Assembly (NCBI RefSeq): GCF_000828895.1
Contig: NZ_AP014568.1
Span: 1,557,858-1,621,857 of the forward strand
Reading direction: 5' to 3'
Origin: Serpentinimonas raichei
GTDB taxonomy: Bacteria; Pseudomonadota; Gammaproteobacteria; Burkholderiales; Burkholderiaceae_C
Length of the DNA: 64,000 nucleotides
Shown: in pieces, positions 24,185-32,756 of the stretch
Position numbering within the stretch: position 1 is the stretch's first letter
How the letters are laid out: each line of letters starts with the position of its first letter
Notes under the pieces: model-generated
Seen by the model: only the letters and a program-made list of their open reading frames with translations
Told to the model about the DNA's origin: nothing
Database searches by the model: none
Program-made: the position numbers and the translations under genes

Positions 24185-24288
24185 TGCATCCCGTTCATTG
24201 CAACCCGCCGCAGCCATCTCCAATGCTCATGAGCTCGGGAGGCCGGTCGGCAGATGGTCATCGATCCGCCAGCAGAGCAAGGAGCCCC

Positions 24289-24627
24289 ATGATGGCAAGA
24301 AAACTCGATGACGTGATCGCCGCGCTGCCCAAAGAGCGCCAGCAACGGGTGCAAGCGCGAGCGATGGAGTTGGCCACGCTCAAAGATCTGCGCTTGGCGG
24401 CCGAGCAAACCAAGCAGCAACTGGCCGCCACGCTGGGTGTGGGGCAAGACACCATCTCGCGCCTGGAAAAACGCAGCGACATGCTGCTGTCAACCCTGCG
24501 CCAGTACGTGCAAGGCATGGGTGGCAATCTCGAGCTCGTGACCCAGTTCCCGAACCGCCCGCCCGTGGTGATCGAGCACCTTGGGGTGCAAGCAAGCTCT
24601 GACAAAAAGCCTCGCGCAAGCGCTTGA
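24289..24627 (+). CDS. Xre-family HTH protein, orphan antitoxin type
   Basis: The 112-residue protein begins MMARKLDDVIAALPKERQQ and carries an HTH (LRLAAEQTKQQLAATLGV; DTISRLEKRSDMLLSTLRQY) with the C-terminal FPNRPPVVIEHLG that marks antitoxins usually found behind a RelE/HigB-type toxin. AAGGAG lies 4 nt before 24289 and 7 nt before the second ATG at 24292, so either may be used. No matching toxin is next to it; the about 100 bp upstream contain only non-coding sequence. It may be an orphan that survived loss of its partner. Confidence 0.75.
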   Translation: MMARKLDDVIAALPKERQQRVQARAMELATLKDLRLAAEQTKQQLAATLGVGQDTISRLEKRSDMLLSTLRQYVQGMGGNLELVTQFPNRPPVVIEHLGVQASSDKKPRASA

Positions 24628-24658
24628 AGGCAAGCTCGGGGATCTGCGCAGGTTTTGG

Positions 24659-24835
24659 CTACATCAATATTCGGGGCTTGGGCACGTGTGCGGCGCGCTC
24701 GATGAGATCGTGCAGAAGGGATATGGCCACGGCCTTGTTGATCTCTCGGCTGGGCGAGCCTTGCGCACGGATGGCCCTGAACTCGACTTCGGATTCGGAT
24801 TCGGATTCGGGGATGTGGAGGGCTACCCCTGTCAC
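24659..24835 (-). pseudogene. ArfB-like N-terminal fragment with hexamer expansion
   Basis: A GTG-started 58-codon frame reads LHIPESESESE, then VEFRAIRAQGSPSREINKA. The start of ArfB (YaeJ) ribosome-rescue hydrolases reads LHIPESE followed by an IRAQGAGGQNVNK-type segment. Here the catalytic GGQ is replaced and the frame ends after another 25 residues, so hydrolysis cannot work. The repeated Glu-Ser comes from a tandem TTCGGA hexamer at 24788-24811. It is most likely a decayed copy carried into the island; chance similarity cannot be excluded. Confidence 0.4.
24788..24811. repeat. Hexanucleotide tandem repeat
   Basis: Three TTCGGA units plus a variant TTCGGG unit lie in tandem. They encode the Glu-Ser repeats in the ArfB-like fragment on the minus strand and could change length by slippage. 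Confidence 0.7.
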
Positions 24836-24889
24836 CCTAGCCGGGTGGAGTCCTTTGGGGGCCGTTGCTTGGCTGCCACATCACGGGCG

Positions 24890-24927
24890 ATCTAAGGGCA
24901 TGTTCCAGTTGAACCGCCTGATCGGCG
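24890..24927 (-). repeat. Decayed integron attC site (fifth)
   Basis: The sequence CAGTTGAACCGCC aligns with GAGTTGAACCGCAGG of the intact attC sites, and it is followed by GGCGCTGTGGGACAGGGTGC exactly as the others are. The outer half (TCTAAGG) and the GTTAGGC box are degraded. It marks the left end of the recognisable cassette array. Confidence 0.5.
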
Positions 24928-25030
24928 CTGTGGGACAGGGTGCTGTAGCCTTGGAACGCTGCGGCGTTGCCGGAGATTATGGTGGGGGCCTTGCAGGAAG
25001 GCAAGCGCGGTGTATCCGAGCAGCGTCGAG
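24928..25030 (-). repeat. Conserved pre-attC segment, copy 3
   Basis: This segment is homologous to 28024-28125 and 31992-32085. On the minus strand it reads ...CTTGCAAGGCC..., CATAATCTCCGGCAACGCCG and the usual lead-in to attC. The shared frame translates to TALAFLQGPHHNLRQRRSV. It forms the 3' part of a cassette, downstream of the gene at 25085-25630. Confidence 0.6.
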
Positions 25031-25084
25031 ATGGCCGAGTAGCAGGCCAGCGGAGCGGAAATGAGACTGGTTTTGGGGGCGAGG

Positions 25085-25630
25085 TCAAGGATTCAGGTAG
25101 AAGTCGTCTGGGAACGGACCTGCCCCGTCAATGGGATGATCATCAGCATAGTTACTTGGCGCATTGTTGAAGCTGCCACTATTACCATATCGACCAGAAA
25201 AGTTTTCCTGCTGAAGTCGGGCCTCGTATTCATCCTCCTCCATTCTGCGACGCTGGTCCTCCAATTCGTTGGAGTTCTCTGAGAACTTTCCATTCGCCCG
25301 TGACAGCATTTCCTGATGTGCGTACGCCTGCCGACGGCCTGCCTCTACTACTTCCTTCTTGCGGCGCTTCCGATAGTAATTGCGTTGTCCACCAAGCCAC
25401 CTTTCAATGTCCTCGCGGAGCTTCCAAGTCTCAAACGCCGCTATGGTGGTCTCCCGCTGCCCGCCGTCTCGCAGTGTCCTAATCTTCGTACGCAAGATGA
25501 CTGGGATGAAGCGCTGCATCCCACGACTTTCGGACCAAAGAAAGACGTGCGGGCAGTCAGGCAGTTGTAGTGTTGGATCAAAGACCAAGACTTCATCATC
25601 CAAGAGGCCGAGCCAAAGTGAGGTGGACAT
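25085..25630 (-). CDS. Integron cassette protein of unknown function
   Basis: I do not recognise this 181-residue protein. The start at 25628-25630 (MSTSLWLGLLDDEVLVFDP) lies 8 bp from the neighbouring attC box, as expected for a cassette gene, and rules out the longer frame that crosses attC. The N-terminal half looks globular with WLGL and HVFLWSES segments. The C-terminal half is strongly charged and likely helical (YYRKRRKKEVVEAGRRQ; ELEDQRRRMEEDEYE), then Asn/Pro-rich. No signal peptide or membrane segment. It is read from right to left like all cassettes here. Confidence 0.65.
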   Translation of the reverse strand: MSTSLWLGLLDDEVLVFDPTLQLPDCPHVFLWSESRGMQRFIPVILRTKIRTLRDGGQRETTIAAFETWKLREDIERWLGGQRNYYRKRRKKEVVEAGRRQAYAHQEMLSRANGKFSENSNELEDQRRRMEEDEYEARLQQENFSGRYGNSGSFNNAPSNYADDHPIDGAGPFPDDFYLNP

Positions 25631-25638
25631 TTCGTGAC

Positions 25639-25700
25639 GCCTAACGTTTGAGGTGAGCGGCACCTGCGCTCTACACGAGATTTCCATATCCATCCGTCGT
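25639..25700 (-). repeat. Partial integron attC site (fourth)
   Basis: GCCTAACGTTTGAGGTGAGC at 25639-25658 matches the GTTAGGC box and the inner L' arm of the intact sites (GCCTAACGTTGAGGTTAACC), followed by a short inverted repeat. The distal arm is not recognisable. Its position fits, between the stop of the broken cassette gene (25671) and the next cassette start (25630). Confidence 0.6.
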
Positions 25701-25907
25701 GTACCAGCCACTGCCCGAGCAGCGGGCGCAACTCTCGACCTCGCCACGGCAGGAGCAGCTAGAAACGAGACGCTGCGTCTTTAGTGCGCTTGCGCGCTCT
25801 GCTTGCACCTTCTCATCGACAGCCTTAATGCGATCCCACTCCTCGACACTAACTTTGAGTATCCGTGCTTCAAGTTGTTGAATACGCGTCTTGAGGCTTT
25901 CTCTTTC
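25671..25907 (-). pseudogene. Cassette gene A, 3' half (cut by IS1380 copy 1)
   Basis: The frame reads ESLKTRIQQLEARIL and VEEWDRIKAVDEKVQ, then CSCRGEVESCARCSGSGWY and a stop. It is a coiled-coil stretch followed by a DnaJ-type zinc-finger pattern CxCxGx(4)CxxCxGxG. Its 5' half lies beyond the IS at 27643-27951. Taking out the IS and one TCTTTC duplication joins the halves in frame, giving one protein of about 180 residues. Confidence 0.8.
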
Positions 25908-27642
25908 CCTGAATCCGTGACCCCATTAGCAGCCAAACTCTAACCCAAGCCGAATCCGCTTTTAGACATGAATTCCGCTCTGGATTTCTCAAATTTGGCC
26001 CAAGCCGAGCGTGTTTGCGCGCCCATGCGCTATCAAAGCATGGGAACGGATGCGTTGAACAAGGCCGTATGGGTGTTTTTGCCTGCAAGCGCGCAGCCCC
26101 CATCCTTGGGAGCCTCCCAATTGGCTGATCTTTCTTCGGGTGCTGGTCGGCAGCGGCTGGGGCTTTGCGCTTGGCCGCTACAGCGCGTCAAGCGCGCGCC
26201 AGTGGCGCTCAAACACCGCAAAGGCCCTGTCGTTGGCCCCCAAGCCCAACACCCACTGGCGGGCATGGTCCACCATGCGGGCGGCCTTGAACATCAACTC
26301 CTGTATCACCGTGCGGATGCGACGGCGCTGCGCGCTGTGGCGCACCGGTGCATCGGGCCCGTGCAGCGTGTGCTGGCCAACCAAGCGCAGCAGGTTCATC
26401 GCCACGGCCGCCAGCGCGCACACCACGTAGTTGGTGTCGAACTTGCCCGAGGGCAGCCGGGTCAGATCCATGTCGGTTTTGAACTCCGAGTGAAACTGCT
26501 CATGCGTGCCGTGCTCGGCGTACAAGGCAATGACCTGCTCGGGCGTGAACGACTCAGGCAAGGTGGTGCTCCAGCCTTCCAGCACATACTCGGGCAACAG
26601 CATCTGCTGGCCCCGTTTGTCAACGGTGCGCTCGGTCAGGCGGTACACGCGGCGTGCTTTGAGGCTCTCGTTACCGTCTCTGATGGCCACGCTTTGCTCC
26701 CACAGGCACTGGCGTTTACCGGGGCGCAATACCGTCCAAGCGGTGTTGGCATCGGCTACCCGTGCCTGGGCGATGGTCTCTACCGGCGTGCTGCGCGGGT
26801 TCCACTTGATGAGCCACGCGACCTCGCGCTGCAGGGCTTTGGCTTGTCGGGCGATGGCACACATCAGCTTGGCCGAATCAAAGCCCGAGTCGGCCCGCAG
26901 CAGCAAGGGCGGCTGGGCCGCTGCCGTGACTTTGGCCGCCAGCGGCAGCAGCCGCTCGATGTTGTATTCGGTCTCGCTGGCCGAGTGCTGGGTGCCCGGG
27001 CGCAGGGCAAACTCCAGGCAAAAGCCTTGGGTGCCCAAGTAGGCCACCAGCGGGCAGTAGCCGTCCACTCCCGCATAGGTGCGCCCCACATGCTCCTTGG
27101 CCGTGCCGCTTTGGTCCATGGCGAAGGTGTCGATGTCCAGTGGCACATAAGCACAGGGCAGCGCCCCGAAGTCGATGGGCTGGCCCTCGAGCTTGAGGCT
27201 CAAAACCGCGGTGTTGATGTCATCGATCAAGTCAAACCAAGCTGGCGCGTGGGTGTCCAAGCGCTGGCGCAGGGTGGGCGACGAGGGCACCGATCGCAAG
27301 CCCAAGGCGCGGGTGAAGAAAGTGTCTTGGCGCTGGCCTTCGATGGCATCAAAATCGTTCTTGCCCAGACACAGCAGGCCCAGGTAGCTCTTGAGGATGT
27401 CGCTATTGGCGATGCCGCTGCGCACGGGGTAAGCGGGGTCGACCAAGGCGTTGAGATTGATGCGCTTGAGGTACTTGCCAATCAGGGCCAAGCCAGCGTG
27501 CTGGCTCAAGTCGTAGGGCAGTTGTTTGATGACAAAATCGGGCATGGGGGCTTCACCTTCAGGGTGAAGCCCACTTGGGGTCTAGAATGTTGATTTCAAT
27601 AGGGAATCAGCAGTATTTTTGGTGCGGGGTCACGGATTCAGG
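25908..27642 (-). mobile_element. IS1380-family element, copy 1 (1,735 bp)
   Basis: The ends are inverted repeats CCTGAATCCGTGACCCC and its complement. A direct repeat TCTTTC lies immediately outside each end (25902-25907 and 27643-27648) as target duplication. The only gene is the transposase at 26178-27545. It is nearly identical to copy 2 (29650-31384), same length and orientation, differing mainly in a cluster of substitutions around 27305-27460. It interrupts an integron cassette gene. Confidence 0.92.
26178..27545 (-). CDS. IS1380-family transposase
   Basis: The 455-residue DDE transposase begins MPDFVIKQLPYDLSQHAG. The catalytic region includes LDIDTFAMDQSGTAKEHVG, LLLRADSGFDSAKLM and, near the C-terminus, EQFHSEFKTDMDLTRLPSG with the catalytic glutamate, typical of IS1380. 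The C-terminal half ends ERHWRALDAL. It is complete and near-identical to the protein at 29920-31287 (one visible change, Thr to Ala at RQDTFFTRAL). A long plus-strand frame over the same DNA is only an antisense shadow. Confidence 0.95.
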   Translation of the reverse strand: MPDFVIKQLPYDLSQHAGLALIGKYLKRINLNALVDPAYPVRSGIANSDILKSYLGLLCLGKNDFDAIEGQRQDTFFTRALGLRSVPSSPTLRQRLDTHAPAWFDLIDDINTAVLSLKLEGQPIDFGALPCAYVPLDIDTFAMDQSGTAKEHVGRTYAGVDGYCPLVAYLGTQGFCLEFALRPGTQHSASETEYNIERLLPLAAKVTAAAQPPLLLRADSGFDSAKLMCAIARQAKALQREVAWLIKWNPRSTPVETIAQARVADANTAWTVLRPGKRQCLWEQSVAIRDGNESLKARRVYRLTERTVDKRGQQMLLPEYVLEGWSTTLPESFTPEQVIALYAEHGTHEQFHSEFKTDMDLTRLPSGKFDTNYVVCALAAVAMNLLRLVGQHTLHGPDAPVRHSAQRRRIRTVIQELMFKAARMVDHARQWVLGLGANDRAFAVFERHWRALDAL

Positions 27643-27951
27643 TCTTTCGTCATCAGTGGTCTTTCGCTCTATAGCACGACTGGCTCGTTCGCCGTTGAGT
27701 TGTACGCCAATATGGTGAACCTGATTCCTCAGCGCGGCGATAACGGTCTGTGCATTCGCGAGCTTCGTGAGGACTCCGTCCAACCGCTCCTGCAGATCCG
27801 ATTCTCCGGATTGAGGCTTGATAATGTCGGCATGGGAGGGTAAGTGCAGCGTCCCATCGGGCCGATACACCAAGTATCCGCCGTCTGTTCCTGAACGGAC
27901 GGTGAAGCCTGGGTTCCTGCGCGCAATTTCCAGTGCTGTTCGATAGTCCAT
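27643..27951 (-). pseudogene. Cassette gene A, 5' half (cut by IS1380 copy 1)
   Basis: It begins with ATG at 27949-27951, 16 bp from the attC box at 27967. It reads MDYRTALEIARRNPGFTV, a short beta-rich section with GGYLVYRPDGTLHLP, then a coiled coil (LQERLDGVLTKLANAQTVI) up to KTTDDER at the insertion point. The remainder is at 25671-25907. Apparent residues PESVTPHQKYC after that point come from the IS end. Confidence 0.8.
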
Positions 27952-27966
27952 GGCGTGGCAAGTGCG

Positions 27967-28027
27967 GCCTATCGTCGAGGTTAACCGGCGTGCCGAAGGC
28001 CCGTCCGAGTTGAACCGCAGGTTAGGC
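27967..28027 (-). repeat. Integron attC site (third)
   Basis: This 61-bp site is nearly identical to those at 31935 and 28668. On the minus strand it has GCCTAAC, then CTGCGGTTCAAC, a short palindromic centre (GGGCCTTCGGCACGCC region), CCGGTTAACCTC and GATAGGC. The last box has one change from GTTAGGC. Layout is that of attC with R'', L'', L' and R' boxes, oriented with the minus-strand genes. Confidence 0.88.
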
Positions 28028-28125
28028 GCTGTGGGGAAGGGTGCTGCGGCCTTGGAACGCTGCGGCGCTGCCGGAGATTATGGCCGGGGCTGTGGATGAA
28101 GGCATACGCGGTATGCCCGAGCCGC
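28024..28125 (-). repeat. Conserved pre-attC segment, copy 2
   Basis: The segment is shared with 24928-25030 and 31992-32085. In the minus strand it translates TAYAFIHSPGHNLRQRRSV and runs on into attC. A short frame starting near 28205 (MLRNLALKLTCAVNTKR, then a hydrophobic LACCFAIWVRLGHTAYAFI) could encode a small membrane peptide, but expression is uncertain. Confidence 0.6.
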
Positions 28126-28194
28126 ACCCAAATGGCAAAGCAGCAGGCCAATACCCGTTTGGTGTTGACAGCGCAGGTCAGCTTGAGCGCCAAG

Positions 28195-28641
28195 TTACGC
28201 AGCATTGGATGGATATTCCCCGCGCCAAAGTTGAGCAATAATTCGTTGAAAATCATATATCGACGATACGTATTCTTCATTTGTACAGTTACTCGTGGTT
28301 ACGAGCCAAGATGACTTTCCTGTCTTGCTGACGGTTCGGCCATAACGGGCGAGCTCGACTACGCATTCATCTTCGTTCAAGTATGGCCAACCACTGCGAT
28401 CAGGTGCTGATTTCGGACTGGAAGTGCTTACTGATTTTCCGTTCGAATCGTCCTGCCGCCGCGCCTCAATTTCTGCCAAGAATTCAACTTCGATCTGTTG
28501 TACTCGTAAGATTATGTAGCGCGCTCTGGCCCTTGCCAAGTCTCCGTCCGTAAGCGCATACGCCCGGGCCCAGAGGCCAGGGTGCGGAGGGCCTGACATC
28601 AGTTCGCTAGCCACTCGGTCGAAGAACAGTTGAGGATTCAC
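28195..28641 (-). CDS. Integron cassette protein of unknown function
   Basis: The 148-residue protein starts at GTG (28639-28641) 27 bp from the attC box at 28668. It begins MNPQLFFDRVASELMSG, has an alpha-helical middle (DLARARARYIILRVQQIEVEF) and a region ECVVELARYGRTVSKTGKSSW with a following YVSSIYDFQRIIAQLW. I do not recognise a family. Base composition is more AT-rich than the chromosome part, typical of cassette genes. Confidence 0.6.
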   Translation of the reverse strand: MNPQLFFDRVASELMSGPPHPGLWARAYALTDGDLARARARYIILRVQQIEVEFLAEIEARRQDDSNGKSVSTSSPKSAPDRSGWPYLNEDECVVELARYGRTVSKTGKSSWLVTTSNCTNEEYVSSIYDFQRIIAQLWRGEYPSNAA

Positions 28642-28667
28642 GATGTGTAATGGACTGTTGTTGTACT

Positions 28668-28728
28668 ACCTAACGTTGAGGTTAACCGGCGTGCCGAAGG
28701 CACGTCCGAGTTGAACCGCAGGTTGGCG
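28668..28728 (-). repeat. Integron attC site (second)
   Basis: This 61-bp site has ACCTAACGTTGAGGTTAACC at one end, the same palindromic centre as its sisters, and GAGTTGAACCGCAGGTTGGC at the other. On the minus strand its R' box is GTTAGGT (fits GTTRRRY). The R'' box is degenerate (CGCCAAC). Confidence 0.88.
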
Positions 28729-28828
28729 GGGTAATCGGCATCCTGCCGAAAATCGCGCCGAAGAAACAGCCGTTATTCATAACCAAAAATTATTATCTAT
28801 GAGCAACTTCAGTGTTTCTTGAGAGGCG

Positions 28829-29649
28829 TCATGGGCGATGCGCTGCGACGTTCTGATCCGCCTGCCAATACAAGTGACGTAGAGCGAGGTTAGTAACTTG
28901 CTTATTGGACTCCACTTCGGTTAGGTAGGGATGGCTTAGAAAGAAAGTCGCGGACCGCAGGTTTATGGATACTCCATTAAGTCGTAACATCGACTCAGCG
29001 ACTACACCCGTCAAAGCGGAGCCGCTTATGCGTACTCTGCCAACATGCCGCGCTAGTCGTGGCGGTGGCTCAGTTAAGTCGCTAAATTCATCAGGTTGGA
29101 CAAGCGGCGGTGGGCCTGCTCTCACAAGATCTGAATAGTACTTGTCCTCGAGTAAATCGGTGATTAAGTTGGAACGGTCAATTCTCAACCGTTGCTCCGG
29201 CGTTAGGCTATGGTAATCAGTGTCAAAGATGGTTCTAGTTAACTGCTCGCGGAGTCTTACAACTTTTTGTTCGAAGTGATGTTCTTCAATATTCTCCGTT
29301 CGCCACTCGTTCACTCCCTCAGAAATTCTGCTCGCCCAGCTACAGAGTATTTTGGAATACAATTGGAATTCTTTGCTCCAGCTTTTCTGCCAGAGTCGAA
29401 TGTCTGAAGGAAGAATGCGCAGCACCGGCAAGCCAATGTCTCGCAAAAGCGCCGTCTTGCGTTTGTCTTTCAACTGACGTTGCGGATTATTGTGAGTTTG
29501 TCCGTCAACTTCAACGCACAGCAAGGGTCTGTTGGAGTCTTGACTGTGAATCACTATGTCTACGGGCCCGAGGCTTCTTATGGATTCGACTAGTTCGATG
29601 TTAAAGGAGTGCACGTACTCTGGAATCATTCGGTGAACTGCGACTTCAT
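28829..29649 (-). pseudogene. Cassette gene B, 3' part: PD-(D/E)XK nuclease-like domain (cut by IS1380 copy 2)
   Basis: After the IS boundary the frame reads VAVHRMIPEYVHSFNIELV, then VDIVIHSQDSNRPLLCVEVDG and KTALLRDIGLPVLRILPSD. This is the D...E-x-D core of a DUF2726/DUF559-like nuclease fold, followed by about 170 residues of unknown type ending NVAAHRP. Its 5' part lies at 31385-31927. Removing the IS and one TTCAT duplication restores HICLHEVAVHRM in frame, giving a protein of about 450 residues. Confidence 0.8.
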
Positions 29650-31384
29650 CCTGAATCCGTGACCCCATTAGCAGCCAAACTCTAACCCAAGCCGAATCCG
29701 CTTTTAGACATGAATTCCGCTCTGGATTTCTCAAATTTGGCCCAAGCCGAGCGTGTTTGCGCGCCCATGCGCTATCAAAGCATGGGAACGGATGCGTTGA
29801 ACAAGGCCGTATGGGTGTTTTTGCCTGCAAGCGCGCAGCCCCCATCCTTGGGAGCCTCCCAATTGGCTGATCTTTCTTCGGGTGCTGGTCGGCAGCGGCT
29901 GGGGCTTTGCGCTTGGCCGCTACAGCGCGTCAAGCGCGCGCCAGTGGCGCTCAAACACCGCAAAGGCCCTGTCGTTGGCCCCCAAGCCCAACACCCACTG
30001 GCGGGCATGGTCCACCATGCGGGCGGCCTTGAACATCAACTCCTGTATCACCGTGCGGATGCGACGGCGCTGCGCGCTGTGGCGCACCGGTGCATCGGGC
30101 CCGTGCAGCGTGTGCTGGCCAACCAAGCGCAGCAGGTTCATCGCCACGGCCGCCAGCGCGCACACCACGTAGTTGGTGTCGAACTTGCCCGAGGGCAGCC
30201 GGGTCAGATCCATGTCGGTTTTGAACTCCGAGTGAAACTGCTCATGCGTGCCGTGCTCGGCGTACAAGGCAATGACCTGCTCGGGCGTGAACGACTCAGG
30301 CAAGGTGGTGCTCCAGCCTTCCAGCACATACTCGGGCAACAGCATCTGCTGGCCCCGTTTGTCAACGGTGCGCTCGGTCAGGCGGTACACGCGGCGTGCT
30401 TTGAGGCTCTCGTTACCGTCTCTGATGGCCACGCTTTGCTCCCACAGGCACTGGCGTTTACCGGGGCGCAATACCGTCCAAGCGGTGTTGGCATCGGCTA
30501 CCCGTGCCTGGGCGATGGTCTCTACCGGCGTGCTGCGCGGGTTCCACTTGATGAGCCACGCGACCTCGCGCTGCAGGGCTTTGGCTTGTCGGGCGATGGC
30601 ACACATCAGCTTGGCCGAATCAAAGCCCGAGTCGGCCCGCAGCAGCAAGGGCGGCTGGGCCGCTGCCGTGACTTTGGCCGCCAGCGGCAGCAGCCGCTCG
30701 ATGTTGTATTCGGTCTCGCTGGCCGAGTGCTGGGTGCCCGGGCGCAGGGCAAACTCCAGGCAAAAGCCTTGGGTGCCCAAGTAGGCCACCAGCGGGCAGT
30801 AGCCGTCCACTCCCGCATAGGTGCGCCCCACATGCTCCTTGGCCGTGCCGCTTTGGTCCATGGCGAAGGTGTCGATGTCCAGTGGCACATAAGCACAGGG
30901 CAGCGCCCCGAAGTCGATGGGCTGGCCCTCGAGCTTGAGGCTCAAAACCGCGGTGTTGATGTCATCGATCAAGTCAAACCAAGCTGGCGCGTGGGTGTCC
31001 AAGCGCTGGCGCAGGGTGGGCGACGAGGGCACCGATCGCAAGCCCAAGGCGCGGGTGAAGAAAGCGTCTTGGCGCTGGCCTTCAATAGCATCAAAATCGT
31101 TCTTGCCCAAGCACAGCAGGCCCAAGTAACTCTTGAGGATGTCGCTATTGGCGATGCCGCTGCGCACGGGGTAAGCGGGATCTACCAAGGCGTTGAGGTT
31201 GATGCGCTTGAGGTACTTGCCAATCAGGGCCAAGCCAGCGTGCTGGCTCAAGTCGTAGGGCAGTTGTTTGATGACAAAATCGGGCATGGGGGCTTCACCT
31301 TCAGGGTGAAGCCCACTTGGGGTCTAGAATGTTGATTTCAATAGGGAATCAGCAGTATTTTTGGTGCGGGGTCACGGATTCAGG
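29650..31384 (-). mobile_element. IS1380-family element, copy 2 (1,735 bp)
   Basis: It has the same ends (CCTGAATCCGTGACCCC inverted) and length as copy 1. The duplication TTCAT flanks it at 29645-29649 and 31385-31389. Because this differs from the TCTTTC of copy 1, the two are separate insertions, not the arms of one composite transposon. They could still recombine as 1.7-kb direct repeats and delete the 2-kb cassette DNA between them. Confidence 0.92.
29920..31287 (-). CDS. IS1380-family transposase (copy 2)
   Basis: The 455-residue transposase has the same DDE features as copy 1 (MDQSGTAKEHVG, RADSGFDSAK, EQFHSEFKTDMD). Differences from copy 1 are confined to a stretch near its N-terminal coding part (31065-31200), where about ten substitutions cluster, nearly all silent. 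The gene is intact and probably functional. Confidence 0.95.
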   Translation of the reverse strand: MPDFVIKQLPYDLSQHAGLALIGKYLKRINLNALVDPAYPVRSGIANSDILKSYLGLLCLGKNDFDAIEGQRQDAFFTRALGLRSVPSSPTLRQRLDTHAPAWFDLIDDINTAVLSLKLEGQPIDFGALPCAYVPLDIDTFAMDQSGTAKEHVGRTYAGVDGYCPLVAYLGTQGFCLEFALRPGTQHSASETEYNIERLLPLAAKVTAAAQPPLLLRADSGFDSAKLMCAIARQAKALQREVAWLIKWNPRSTPVETIAQARVADANTAWTVLRPGKRQCLWEQSVAIRDGNESLKARRVYRLTERTVDKRGQQMLLPEYVLEGWSTTLPESFTPEQVIALYAEHGTHEQFHSEFKTDMDLTRLPSGKFDTNYVVCALAAVAMNLLRLVGQHTLHGPDAPVRHSAQRRRIRTVIQELMFKAARMVDHARQWVLGLGANDRAFAVFERHWRALDAL

Positions 31385-31927
31385 TTCATGTAAGCAGATA
31401 TGTGGAGTCATAGCACTAATCTGAAAGGCGACATTGCGCTCTATTAGATTTATGGGTTGCCGGTCTCCTGAGTAATTCCGAGAGATGCCCAAACGCGAAA
31501 CGGACTTCTCAACAAACTCCTCTGGCGAAACAAGTGGTTCGAATCGGAGCATTGGCGCGCCCCTCAGATCGAGGAAGTCGGTTGCACCGGACGCATCGGA
31601 TTCTTCATCAGTGATAAACAAGAGCGGCTTAGTTTCGATCTTGTTTCGACCATGCGCGATGGCAAAAAGTGCGCTCATCTTCTTGACATCGTGGGTGTGT
31701 CCAGCCTGATGCCTCGTTGGGTCGAAGAATGCCGACAATGCGCAGCCAGCAAGAACCACATGATCATCGTCTTCAAGGCGGCTAACAAGCCCGTTGAATA
31801 CAGCCCACTGACTTTGGCTGAGAACGGGACGGGCGTGCCAGAGCTCCGGCTTGGTCTCAAGCAAATACTCGTCGAGGAGAGAGTCCAGCGTTCTGTCGTT
31901 TTCCATGGGCGTAACCTCAAGTGCCAT
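31385..31927 (-). pseudogene. Cassette gene B, 5' part (cut by IS1380 copy 2)
   Basis: It starts at ATG 31927 or, with a GAGG 8 nt upstream, at 31906 (MENDRTLDSLLDEYLLE). It contains WAVFNGLVSRLEDDDHVVLA, FDPTRHQAGHTHDVKKMSAL and KPLLFITDEESDASGATDF, and reaches HICLHE at the insertion point. I do not recognise this N-terminal domain. The nuclease-like remainder is at 28829-29649. The start lies within 10-30 bp of the attC box at 31935, as for other cassettes. Confidence 0.8.
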
Positions 31928-31934
31928 CAATGAC

Positions 31935-31995
31935 GCCTAACGTTGAGGTTAACCGGCGTGCCGAAGGCACGTCCGAGTTGAACCGCAGGTTAGGC
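31935..31995 (-). repeat. Integron attC site (first)
   Basis: This 61-bp site has both outer boxes intact: on the minus strand GCCTAAC (RYYYAAC) at one end and GTTAGGC (GTTRRRY) at the other. The arms are CTGCGGTTCAACTCGG and CCGGTTAACCTCAAC around a palindromic CGTGCC TTC GGCACG centre. It is the best-preserved of the series and defines the consensus. Confidence 0.92.
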
Positions 31996-32209
31996 GCTGT
32001 GGGACAGGGTGCCGCAGCCTTGGAACGTTGCGGCGCTGCCCGAGATTATGGCCGGGGCTGTGCAGGAAAGCAAGCGCGGTGAGCCAGTGCCTTTCCACGA
32101 AGGCCTGCCACCAAGCAGCACCGACGAAGCCCACGACGGCTGCCCGCCAAGCTGTGGAGCTTGCCCCACCAGCATACCCAGCCGGTGCAAGCTCAAGCTT
32201 GTGGCTCAT
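31949..32209 (-). CDS. Possible small membrane protein of the right-most cassette
   Basis: The 86-residue frame MSHKLELAPAGYAGGASS, then a hydrophobic stretch AAVVGFVGAAWWQAF and LTALAFLHSPGHNLGQRR, runs through the conserved pre-attC segment and well into attC. The C-terminal part repeats in the segments at 28024 and 24928. Frames running into attC occur in real cassettes, but the conservation may reflect the DNA rather than a protein. It overlaps the HAD gene by 17 bp. Confidence 0.35.
   Translation of the reverse strand: MSHKLELAPAGYAGGASSTAWRAAVVGFVGAAWWQAFVERHWLTALAFLHSPGHNLGQRRNVPRLRHPVPQRLTCGSTRTCLRHAG
31992..32085 (-). repeat. Conserved pre-attC segment, copy 1
   Basis: This is the third occurrence of the about 90-bp segment next to attC (GGCGCTGTGGGACAGGGTGC, then CTTGGAACGTTGCGGCGCTG, then GAGATTATGGCCGGGGCTGT). 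The three copies differ by scattered substitutions only. Confidence 0.65.
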
Positions 32210-32756
32210 CCGGTGGCGCTGCTTGCCACCCCATCACAGGCGCGATCGTCCACTGCGACAGGGCATCTTGTGTACCCGCATCCGACACGCCCAGAGCGGG
32301 GTTGGTCCAGATGAACTGCGGATTCCACGAGGCCAACAGATGCGCGTCCTCTTGAAACATGGAAGGCCGGTCATCGAGCACGCACACCGACTCGATCTTC
32401 CAGCCCTCGACCTCCTGCCAGGTGTTGAGAGCCAAGTCGATGTAGGCCGCATGAGAGAGCGACTCACGCTCCTGCGGGGAAATCCACCTGTCGGTGCTGA
32501 TCACCCGTGGCGCCAGTTCCGGCCCCAGCAACTCGCGCAGGGCCTGATCGCTGGCGCGGCGCCGCCAAGTGGAATGCACCAGGATTTTTGCATCCGACCC
32601 GGCAAGTGCCACCTCCAGTTCTGGCAACCAGCGCAACAAGCCCTGGGTGCGCGCCTGCGTGGCCAACTGCCAGCCAGGAGCAGAAAAATCCAGCAGCACG
32701 CGGCAGTCTGCCGGGTGCAAGACGCCATCAAGGTCCAGGCAAAGAATGCGGCTCAT
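32193..32756 (-). CDS. HAD-superfamily hydrolase of the Swiss-army-knife-associated type
   Basis: The 187-residue protein begins MSRILCLDLDGVLHPADC with the HAD nucleophile Asp and second Asp (DLDGV). It then has ILVHSTWRRRA (motif II Ser/Thr region) and VCVLDDRPSMF (motif IV acidic pair). The build matches the HAD domain family associated with nucleic-acid repair proteins. Its ATG overlaps the stop of the coiled-coil gene by 4 bp, so both form an operon. It lies at the right edge of the cassette array, with no attC between it and the coiled-coil gene. Confidence 0.75.
   Translation of the reverse strand: MSRILCLDLDGVLHPADCRVLLDFSAPGWQLATQARTQGLLRWLPELEVALAGSDAKILVHSTWRRRASDQALRELLGPELAPRVISTDRWISPQERESLSHAAYIDLALNTWQEVEGWKIESVCVLDDRPSMFQEDAHLLASWNPQFIWTNPALGVSDAGTQDALSQWTIAPVMGWQAAPPDEPQA

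What the first reader, a model, noticed from the sequence alone, without database searches (positions are those of the whole stretch)
24890..32209. A cryptic integron cassette array without integrase
Three near-identical 61-bp attC sites (27967, 28668, 31935) and two decayed ones (24890, 25639) punctuate the region. Each intact site has GCCTAAC/GTTAGGC-type outer boxes, inner arms CTGCGGTTCAAC and GGTTAACCTCAA and a palindromic centre. All unbroken genes between them run on the minus strand and begin 8-30 bp from the preceding attC, exactly the cassette layout. No intI-type tyrosine recombinase is visible in the window, so this is either a cluster of attC sites lacking an integrase or the tail of an array whose platform lies elsewhere. 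Cassette genes here are unknown proteins.
Basis: partly seen in the sequence, partly recalled or inferred. Interest (0 to 1): 0.85.

Follow-up and report, generated by a model that had tools for sequence, protein, structure and literature searches.

The report
Displaced integron array with promoter-like cassettes
This stretch is a displaced piece of an integron (a gene-collecting system) in a Serpentinimonas chromosome, and it carries a short gene-less cassette with a conserved promoter-like core whose close relatives also sit beside drug-resistance genes on plasmids of Enterobacter, E. coli and Pseudomonas.

Summary
The attC sites are real. They form a satellite array without integrase (CALIN) of a chromosomal integron: an uninterrupted IntI gene (491 bits, cut-off 265) with 12 sites of the same type lies about 147 kb away on the same chromosome. 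One window site (31935) is intact; 28668 and 27967 have altered core boxes; 24890 and 25639 are half-sites. Two 99.4%-identical IS copies break two cassette genes. S. barnesii H1 has both ends of the same satellite with other cassettes inside.

The surprise is beside three of the sites: a ~180-bp ORF-less element ("E") that ends in this attC. The main array has 11 free E cassettes and 2 fused ones. E shows no coding periodicity and no RNA covariation, but of 39 distinct copies 38 keep CATAAT and 34 the full TTGC-N19-CATAAT, pointing at the next cassette. At four loci the E -10 lies 44-65 bp before toxin-antitoxin genes. Beyond Serpentinimonas and two MAGs, E turned up as a free cassette in 4 of 72,556 plasmid records; the three opened have it just upstream of aac(6') genes, and two carry the window's intact attC letter for letter. 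I read E as a mobile promoter cassette; activity is inferred, not measured.

The parts
31935..31995 (-). intact 61-bp attC (R'' GCCTAAC, R' GTTAGGC)
   Evidence: 100% identical to 4 sites in the IntI-linked array and present letter for letter in two plasmid loci; fold z -6.4
28668..28727 (-). attC, R'' one base short (GCCAAC), R' GTTAGGT
   Evidence: 100% over query 2-57; fold z -3.8
27967..28027 (-). attC with R' changed to GATAGGC
   Evidence: 95% to the intact site; sequence; fold z -1.4
25640..25662 (-). attC half-site, R'/L' side only; the cassette's coding frame runs up to it
24890..24925 (-). truncated attC, R''/L'' side only; the same truncation is in S. barnesii H1 (L060)
31996..32105 (-). 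E element, 5' end missing; TTGCTT-17-CATAAT
   Evidence: 86% to E; motif
28028..28149 (-). E element fused behind the 28195-28641 gene; ATGCCT-17-CATAAT
   Evidence: 81% to E; motif
24927..25051 (-). E element at the left edge; TTGCCT-17-CATAAT
   Evidence: 83% to E; motif
31385..31930 (-). 5' part of a cassette gene broken by the IS at 29650-31384
   Evidence: no Pfam family
28829..29649 (-). 3' part of the same broken gene, DUF2726-like
   Evidence: PF10881 24.9 bits, cut-off 24.7
29650..31384 (-). IS copy, 17-bp inverted ends, flanking repeat TTCAT, DDE transposase 455 aa
   Evidence: PF13701 89 bits
28195..28641 (-). cassette gene, 148 aa, no Pfam family; also in S. barnesii H1 at the same edge
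27643..27951 (-). 5' part of a cassette gene broken by the IS at 25908-27642
   Evidence: no Pfam family for this piece
25908..27642 (-). IS copy, flanking repeat TCTTTC; 1725 of 1735 bases identical to the other copy
25666..25907 (-). downstream coding piece of the gene broken by the IS at 25908-27642
   Evidence: open frame read on its own; the two pieces were not joined
25085..25630 (-). cassette gene, about 181 aa, no Pfam family

Best explanation
The window holds a satellite cassette array of a Serpentinimonas chromosomal integron. Its cassettes were placed by the IntI encoded 147 kb away, or by an ancestor of it; this step is inferred. The array stayed at this site through a species split while its contents changed. 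Its attC belongs to a lineage-specific, ORF-less cassette E. E works as a mobile promoter: RNA polymerase starts at TTGC-N19-CATAAT and reads through the attC into whatever cassette lies next, so cassettes far from the integron's own promoter, or in a satellite without a platform, can still be expressed. Free E cassettes are moved by integrases through their attC, including into resistance-cassette arrays on plasmids. Shown: the integron, the satellite, E as a discrete cassette, the conserved core, and the plasmid copies. Inferred: transcription from E, and the direction of transfer.
For: IntI 491 bits over cut-off 265, no internal stop. 18 attC matches at E<=1e-3 in the genome: 12 in the array, 3 in the window, 3 alone. 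E at 19 places in the genome (20 rows). The 11 free E copies of the array begin directly after an R' box. 38 of 39 distinct copies keep CATAAT and 34 of 39 the exact TTGC-N19-CATAAT. On the 28 full copies mean column entropy is 0.04 bits in the -10 and 0.11 in TTGC, against 0.52 in the spacer and 1.01 in the middle. No codon-phase signal (p 0.13-0.97); 0 of 29 predicted pairs with two-sided changes. E -10 lies 44, 44, 65 and 62 bp before toxin-antitoxin genes (Pfam). H1 has both satellite ends and E as first cassette after attI. Plasmid E copies have exact cassette boundaries and the intact core.
Against: No expression data. A sigma-70 consensus scan of the array found no site at E and fewer sites than shuffles (2 against a mean of 4.7), because TTGCTT matches only 3 of 6 bases of TTGACA. 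Two other stretches of E, its first bases and a GCTCCGGC block, are as conserved as the -10. E stands before genes no more often than its abundance predicts: p 0.052 if fused copies count, 0.46 for free copies. One copy reads CAGAAT (L035:2951) and the E at the H1 satellite edge has lost CATAAT. Part of the H1 and MAG contigs were found with a pattern that contains CATAAT; of the 18 scored rows that do not match that pattern all 18 keep it.
Confidence: 0.72

Rival explanations
1. An ordinary CALIN whose E element is only a small, selfish, non-functional cassette that spreads because its attC recombines well.
For: Tandem runs of 4 E cassettes in the array and 5 to 6 in an H1 contig are not needed for a promoter; order of E and genes is close to random; attC is as conserved as the core.
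Against: Does not explain why the 6-base -10 and TTGC at fixed spacing stay while the bases between them change, nor the placement of the core right before toxin-antitoxin genes where no attC intervenes.
Confidence: 0.2
2. E is a toxin-antitoxin cassette that lost its genes: promoter, tail and attC remain.
For: In L045 a hicBA plus a second toxin-antitoxin pair lie inside an E with no E bases lost (5' part ends at reference 172, 3' part starts at 170); L036 has a hicBA pair between E parts.
Against: Three unrelated pairs (two HicBA types and Unstab_antitox/ParE) follow E with junctions at different E positions (151, 172-177, 192), which fits repeated gene capture behind E better; a 66%-identical hicBA elsewhere in the family has no E near it. 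L036 junction is ambiguous because E contains a 12-bp internal repeat.
Confidence: 0.3
3. E encodes a structured small RNA.
For: Conserved bases continue about 25 nt downstream of the -10.
Against: Covariation term +1.07, 0 of 29 pairs with two-sided changes on 31 sequences.
Confidence: 0.08
4. The satellite is the end of the main array cut off by a chromosomal inversion rather than cassettes inserted at a new site.
For: Opposite orientation to the main array; the main array ends in a truncated attC next to a transposase gene.
Against: H1 has both satellite ends too, so such an event would be older than the species split; nothing here tests it directly.
Confidence: 0.25

Closest known systems
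CALIN (cluster of attC sites lacking integron-integrase; term recalled, the paper was not held)
   Same: several attC sites within 4 kb of each other, cassettes in one direction, no intI nearby
   Different: a matching complete integron is on the same chromosome, and the satellite is shared in place with another species
Sedentary chromosomal integron
   Same: IntI on the opposite strand next to attI, long array, many near-identical attC sites
   Different: the uniform attC type belongs to E cassettes; gene cassettes of the array carry other attC types
ORF-less gene cassettes with promoter activity (oral metagenome work, recalled; could not be opened)
   Same: cassette without a gene, with a promoter-like sequence and an attC
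   Different: one family amplified to 13 copies in one array, in a different lineage, with copies in plasmid resistance arrays
Class 1 integron resistance arrays
   Same: identical attC and E as a free cassette
   Different: there E is a single cassette among resistance cassettes

Membership tests
attC site | R'' RYYYAAC and R' GTTRRRY boxes | tested here: met
   met at 31935; one base short at 28668; R' changed at 27967; half only at 24890 and 25639
attC site | imperfect hairpin with extrahelical bases | tested here: met
   z -6.4 at 31935, -3.8 at 28668; only -1.4 at 27967
attC site | score against a published attC covariance model | not tested
   model not available; Rfam scan gave no such match
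attC site | recombination by IntI | not testable with these tools
   identity to sites beside an IntI gene is indirect
CALIN | at least two attC sites close together without intI | tested here: met
   three sites within 4.1 kb; the only match over the IntI cut-off in the genome is at C1:1434649-1435593, outside the window
complete chromosomal integron (main array, not the window) | intI over the family cut-off next to an attC array | tested here: met
   array
promoter cassette | no coding signal | tested here: met
   codon-phase test p 0.13-0.97 on 28 copies
promoter cassette | conserved -35/-10 at fixed spacing | tested here: met
   34 of 39 copies exact; but below the consensus scan's threshold
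promoter cassette | transcription starts in the cassette | not testable with these tools
   no RNA data

The most novel reading that the evidence does not exclude
E is both a portable promoter and a seed for new cassettes. Genes joined behind or inside E (at least three unrelated toxin-antitoxin pairs, and gene-plus-E fusions) become promoter-driven cassettes with a ready attC. Different E variants have moved from a Serpentinimonas-like gene pool of alkaline groundwater into plasmid resistance arrays at least twice: a 294-bp form, identical in an Enterobacter and an E. coli plasmid, and a 245-bp form in a Pseudomonas plasmid that is 93.5% identical to an S. barnesii copy.
Probability: 0.4. Interest if true: 0.8.

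Novelty: new variant of a known kind. Interest (0 to 1): 0.6.

Why it matters
How integron cassettes arise, and how cassettes far from the integron promoter are expressed, are open questions. E gives a natural series to test: empty E cassettes, E with genes inside, genes fused before E, and satellites where E is the only visible promoter-like signal. It also gives a sequence marker that ties resistance-cassette arrays on plasmids of Enterobacter, E. coli and Pseudomonas to the integrons of an alkaliphilic groundwater genus.

Tried and rejected
E as a protein-coding cassette: rejected, no codon-phase signal, although read-through ORFs starting at a GTG inside the attC appear. E as a structured RNA: no covariation. 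E placed before genes more often than chance: not shown. Consensus promoter scan: negative. Alignment A1 of seven gene-cassette attC sites was too poor for a covariance model, so none was built. IS of the window against the IS1380-like IS1247 transposase of the Pseudomonas plasmid: only 33% over 103 residues. E in viral contigs by exact pattern: 0. E in 20,395 E. coli records: no match at 1e-5. E in samples of 399 family and 399 order genomes: a full-length match only in the own genome and G179; G191 gave a 46-bp match that I do not count (only the best 2 candidates per genome were scored, and the two samples share some genomes). Literature: all 11 paper runs failed, so no claim about what is in print rests on a search.

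Full report
What is there. The window is C1:1557858-1621857 of a 2.57-Mb single-contig genome. The three 61-bp sites and two half-sites exist. Only 31935 is intact; 28668 has a short R'' and 27967 a changed R' box, and their folds weaken in the same order, z -6.4, -3.8, -1.4.

The platform. The genome has one IntI over the family cut-off, 491 bits against 265, no internal stop, at C1:1434649-1435593. It lies beside an array that reads away from it. With the window site as query, 18 matches reach E<=1e-3: 12 in that array, 3 in the window, 3 alone. Four array sites are identical to 31935. The window array is about 136 kb beyond the end of the main array and opposite in orientation.

Age. The genus is Serpentinimonas: the E pattern hit S. 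barnesii H1 records, and the held genome G179 has the same contig as H1. G179 contigs carry the left edge of the satellite (L060: window 24269-25049 and 28008-28735, 90-92%) and the right edge (L061: window 31935-32440, 85%), with other cassettes beyond, one with a TIR domain. The two edges are on different contigs. L060's edge element is a chimera of the window's two left E elements, which suggests homologous recombination between E copies. The third held species, G073, has no IntI over the cut-off and no E match.

IS copies. Two 1735-bp IS copies (1725 identical bases) with 17-bp inverted ends and flanking repeats TCTTTC and TTCAT break two cassette genes. The pieces were searched apart.

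The E element. About 180 bp without a gene precede the 61-bp attC. In the main array 11 copies are free cassettes that begin directly after an R' box (ten GTTRGGC, one GCTAGGC) and 2 are fused behind genes. Genome-wide there are 19 places (20 rows). H1 has E as first cassette after attI. Two MAGs named Chloroflexi hold E contigs; one of these contigs carries part of an IntI 94.8% identical in DNA to this one, so I take them to be misbinned Serpentinimonas. A P-type ATPase cassette with its E neighbours is 95.3% identical over 2775 aligned bases between the genome and H1.

What E does. No codon-phase signal. No covariation: 0 of 29 pairs. In 39 distinct copies (28 full, 11 partial or fused) 38 keep CATAAT and 34 the exact TTGC-N19-CATAAT. 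Rows scored separately, not all distinct: 17 of 20 own-genome rows were scorable, 17 with CATAAT and 16 with TTGC; 32 of 42 other rows, 32 and 30. Unscored rows include the H1 edge copy that lost CATAAT. On 28 full copies mean entropy is 0.04 in the -10, 0.11 in TTGC, 0.52 in the spacer, 1.01 in the middle and 0.07 in attC. Against the reading: the consensus scan is silent there, other blocks of E are equally conserved, and the gene order test is not significant.

E and toxin-antitoxin genes. At L045 and L048 (93% alike in their hicBA) the E -10 is 44 bp before a HicB-like gene, at L036 65 bp before another HicBA pair, at L047 62 bp before an Unstab_antitox/ParE pair. In L045 the genes lie inside E without loss of E bases. 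A hicBA 66% identical in another genus has no E match in its locus.

Plasmids. E matched 4 of 72,556 plasmid records and so did the attC alone. Three were opened. OW849520 (E. cloacae, human source, Spain): blaIMP-13, E, aac(6')-Ib3, blaOXA-2, qacEdelta1, sul1. NZ_AP018145 (E. coli, human source): intI1, E, aac(6')-IIa. NZ_MZ581331 (P. aeruginosa, source not given): qacF, blaIMP-13, E, aac(6')-Ib3; no integrase is annotated in the stretch shown. The first two share an identical 294-bp E; the third has a different 245-bp E, 93.5% identical to H1 L030:3679-3435, while the 294-bp form is at best 82% over its length and 91% over its last 185 bp. All three keep TTGC-N19-CATAAT. The window's intact attC occurs letter for letter in the first two. 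OW967367 was not opened. I infer transfer from a Serpentinimonas-like pool because E is abundant and diverse there and single on the plasmids; no tree was built.

Cassette contents. Several cassettes in the array and relatives resemble defence genes: a PLD-type nuclease and a WYL protein in this genome, a TIR protein and a PD-T4-3-like protein in H1, a type II restriction-modification pair in a MAG contig. PADLOC gave nothing for the four window pieces given to it.

Verdict. The finding is confirmed as a satellite array of a complete chromosomal integron. The ORF-less, promoter-like cassette family and its plasmid copies raise it above an ordinary CALIN.

Noticed in passing
L063, L064, L065 near 4001: E cassettes on plasmids: two different variants occupy the same slot between blaIMP-13 and aac(6')-Ib3.
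   Followed up: partly
L063 4263, L065 4214; L014 11607: A GTG inside the 61-bp attC opens a frame that runs into the next gene (aac(6')-Ib3 on plasmids; the Rnk/GreA-like gene in L014), so the attC may add an N-terminal extension.
   Followed up: no
L031, L032, L034, L036: MAG contigs named Chloroflexi carry E arrays and, in L031, part of a Serpentinimonas-like IntI; probably misbinned.
   Followed up: partly
L014 3704-3725: Inverted repeat TGTACGCCTTGGGTGGTGTACA just upstream of intI, at the attI side; a possible regulatory site.
   Followed up: no
L060: Chimeric E at the H1 satellite edge, a sign of homologous recombination between E copies.
   Followed up: partly
L030 (flipped) about 1010-1060 and similar in L031, L034, L035: Some E copies have the TTGC-TTCCT stretch duplicated upstream of the core.
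   Followed up: no
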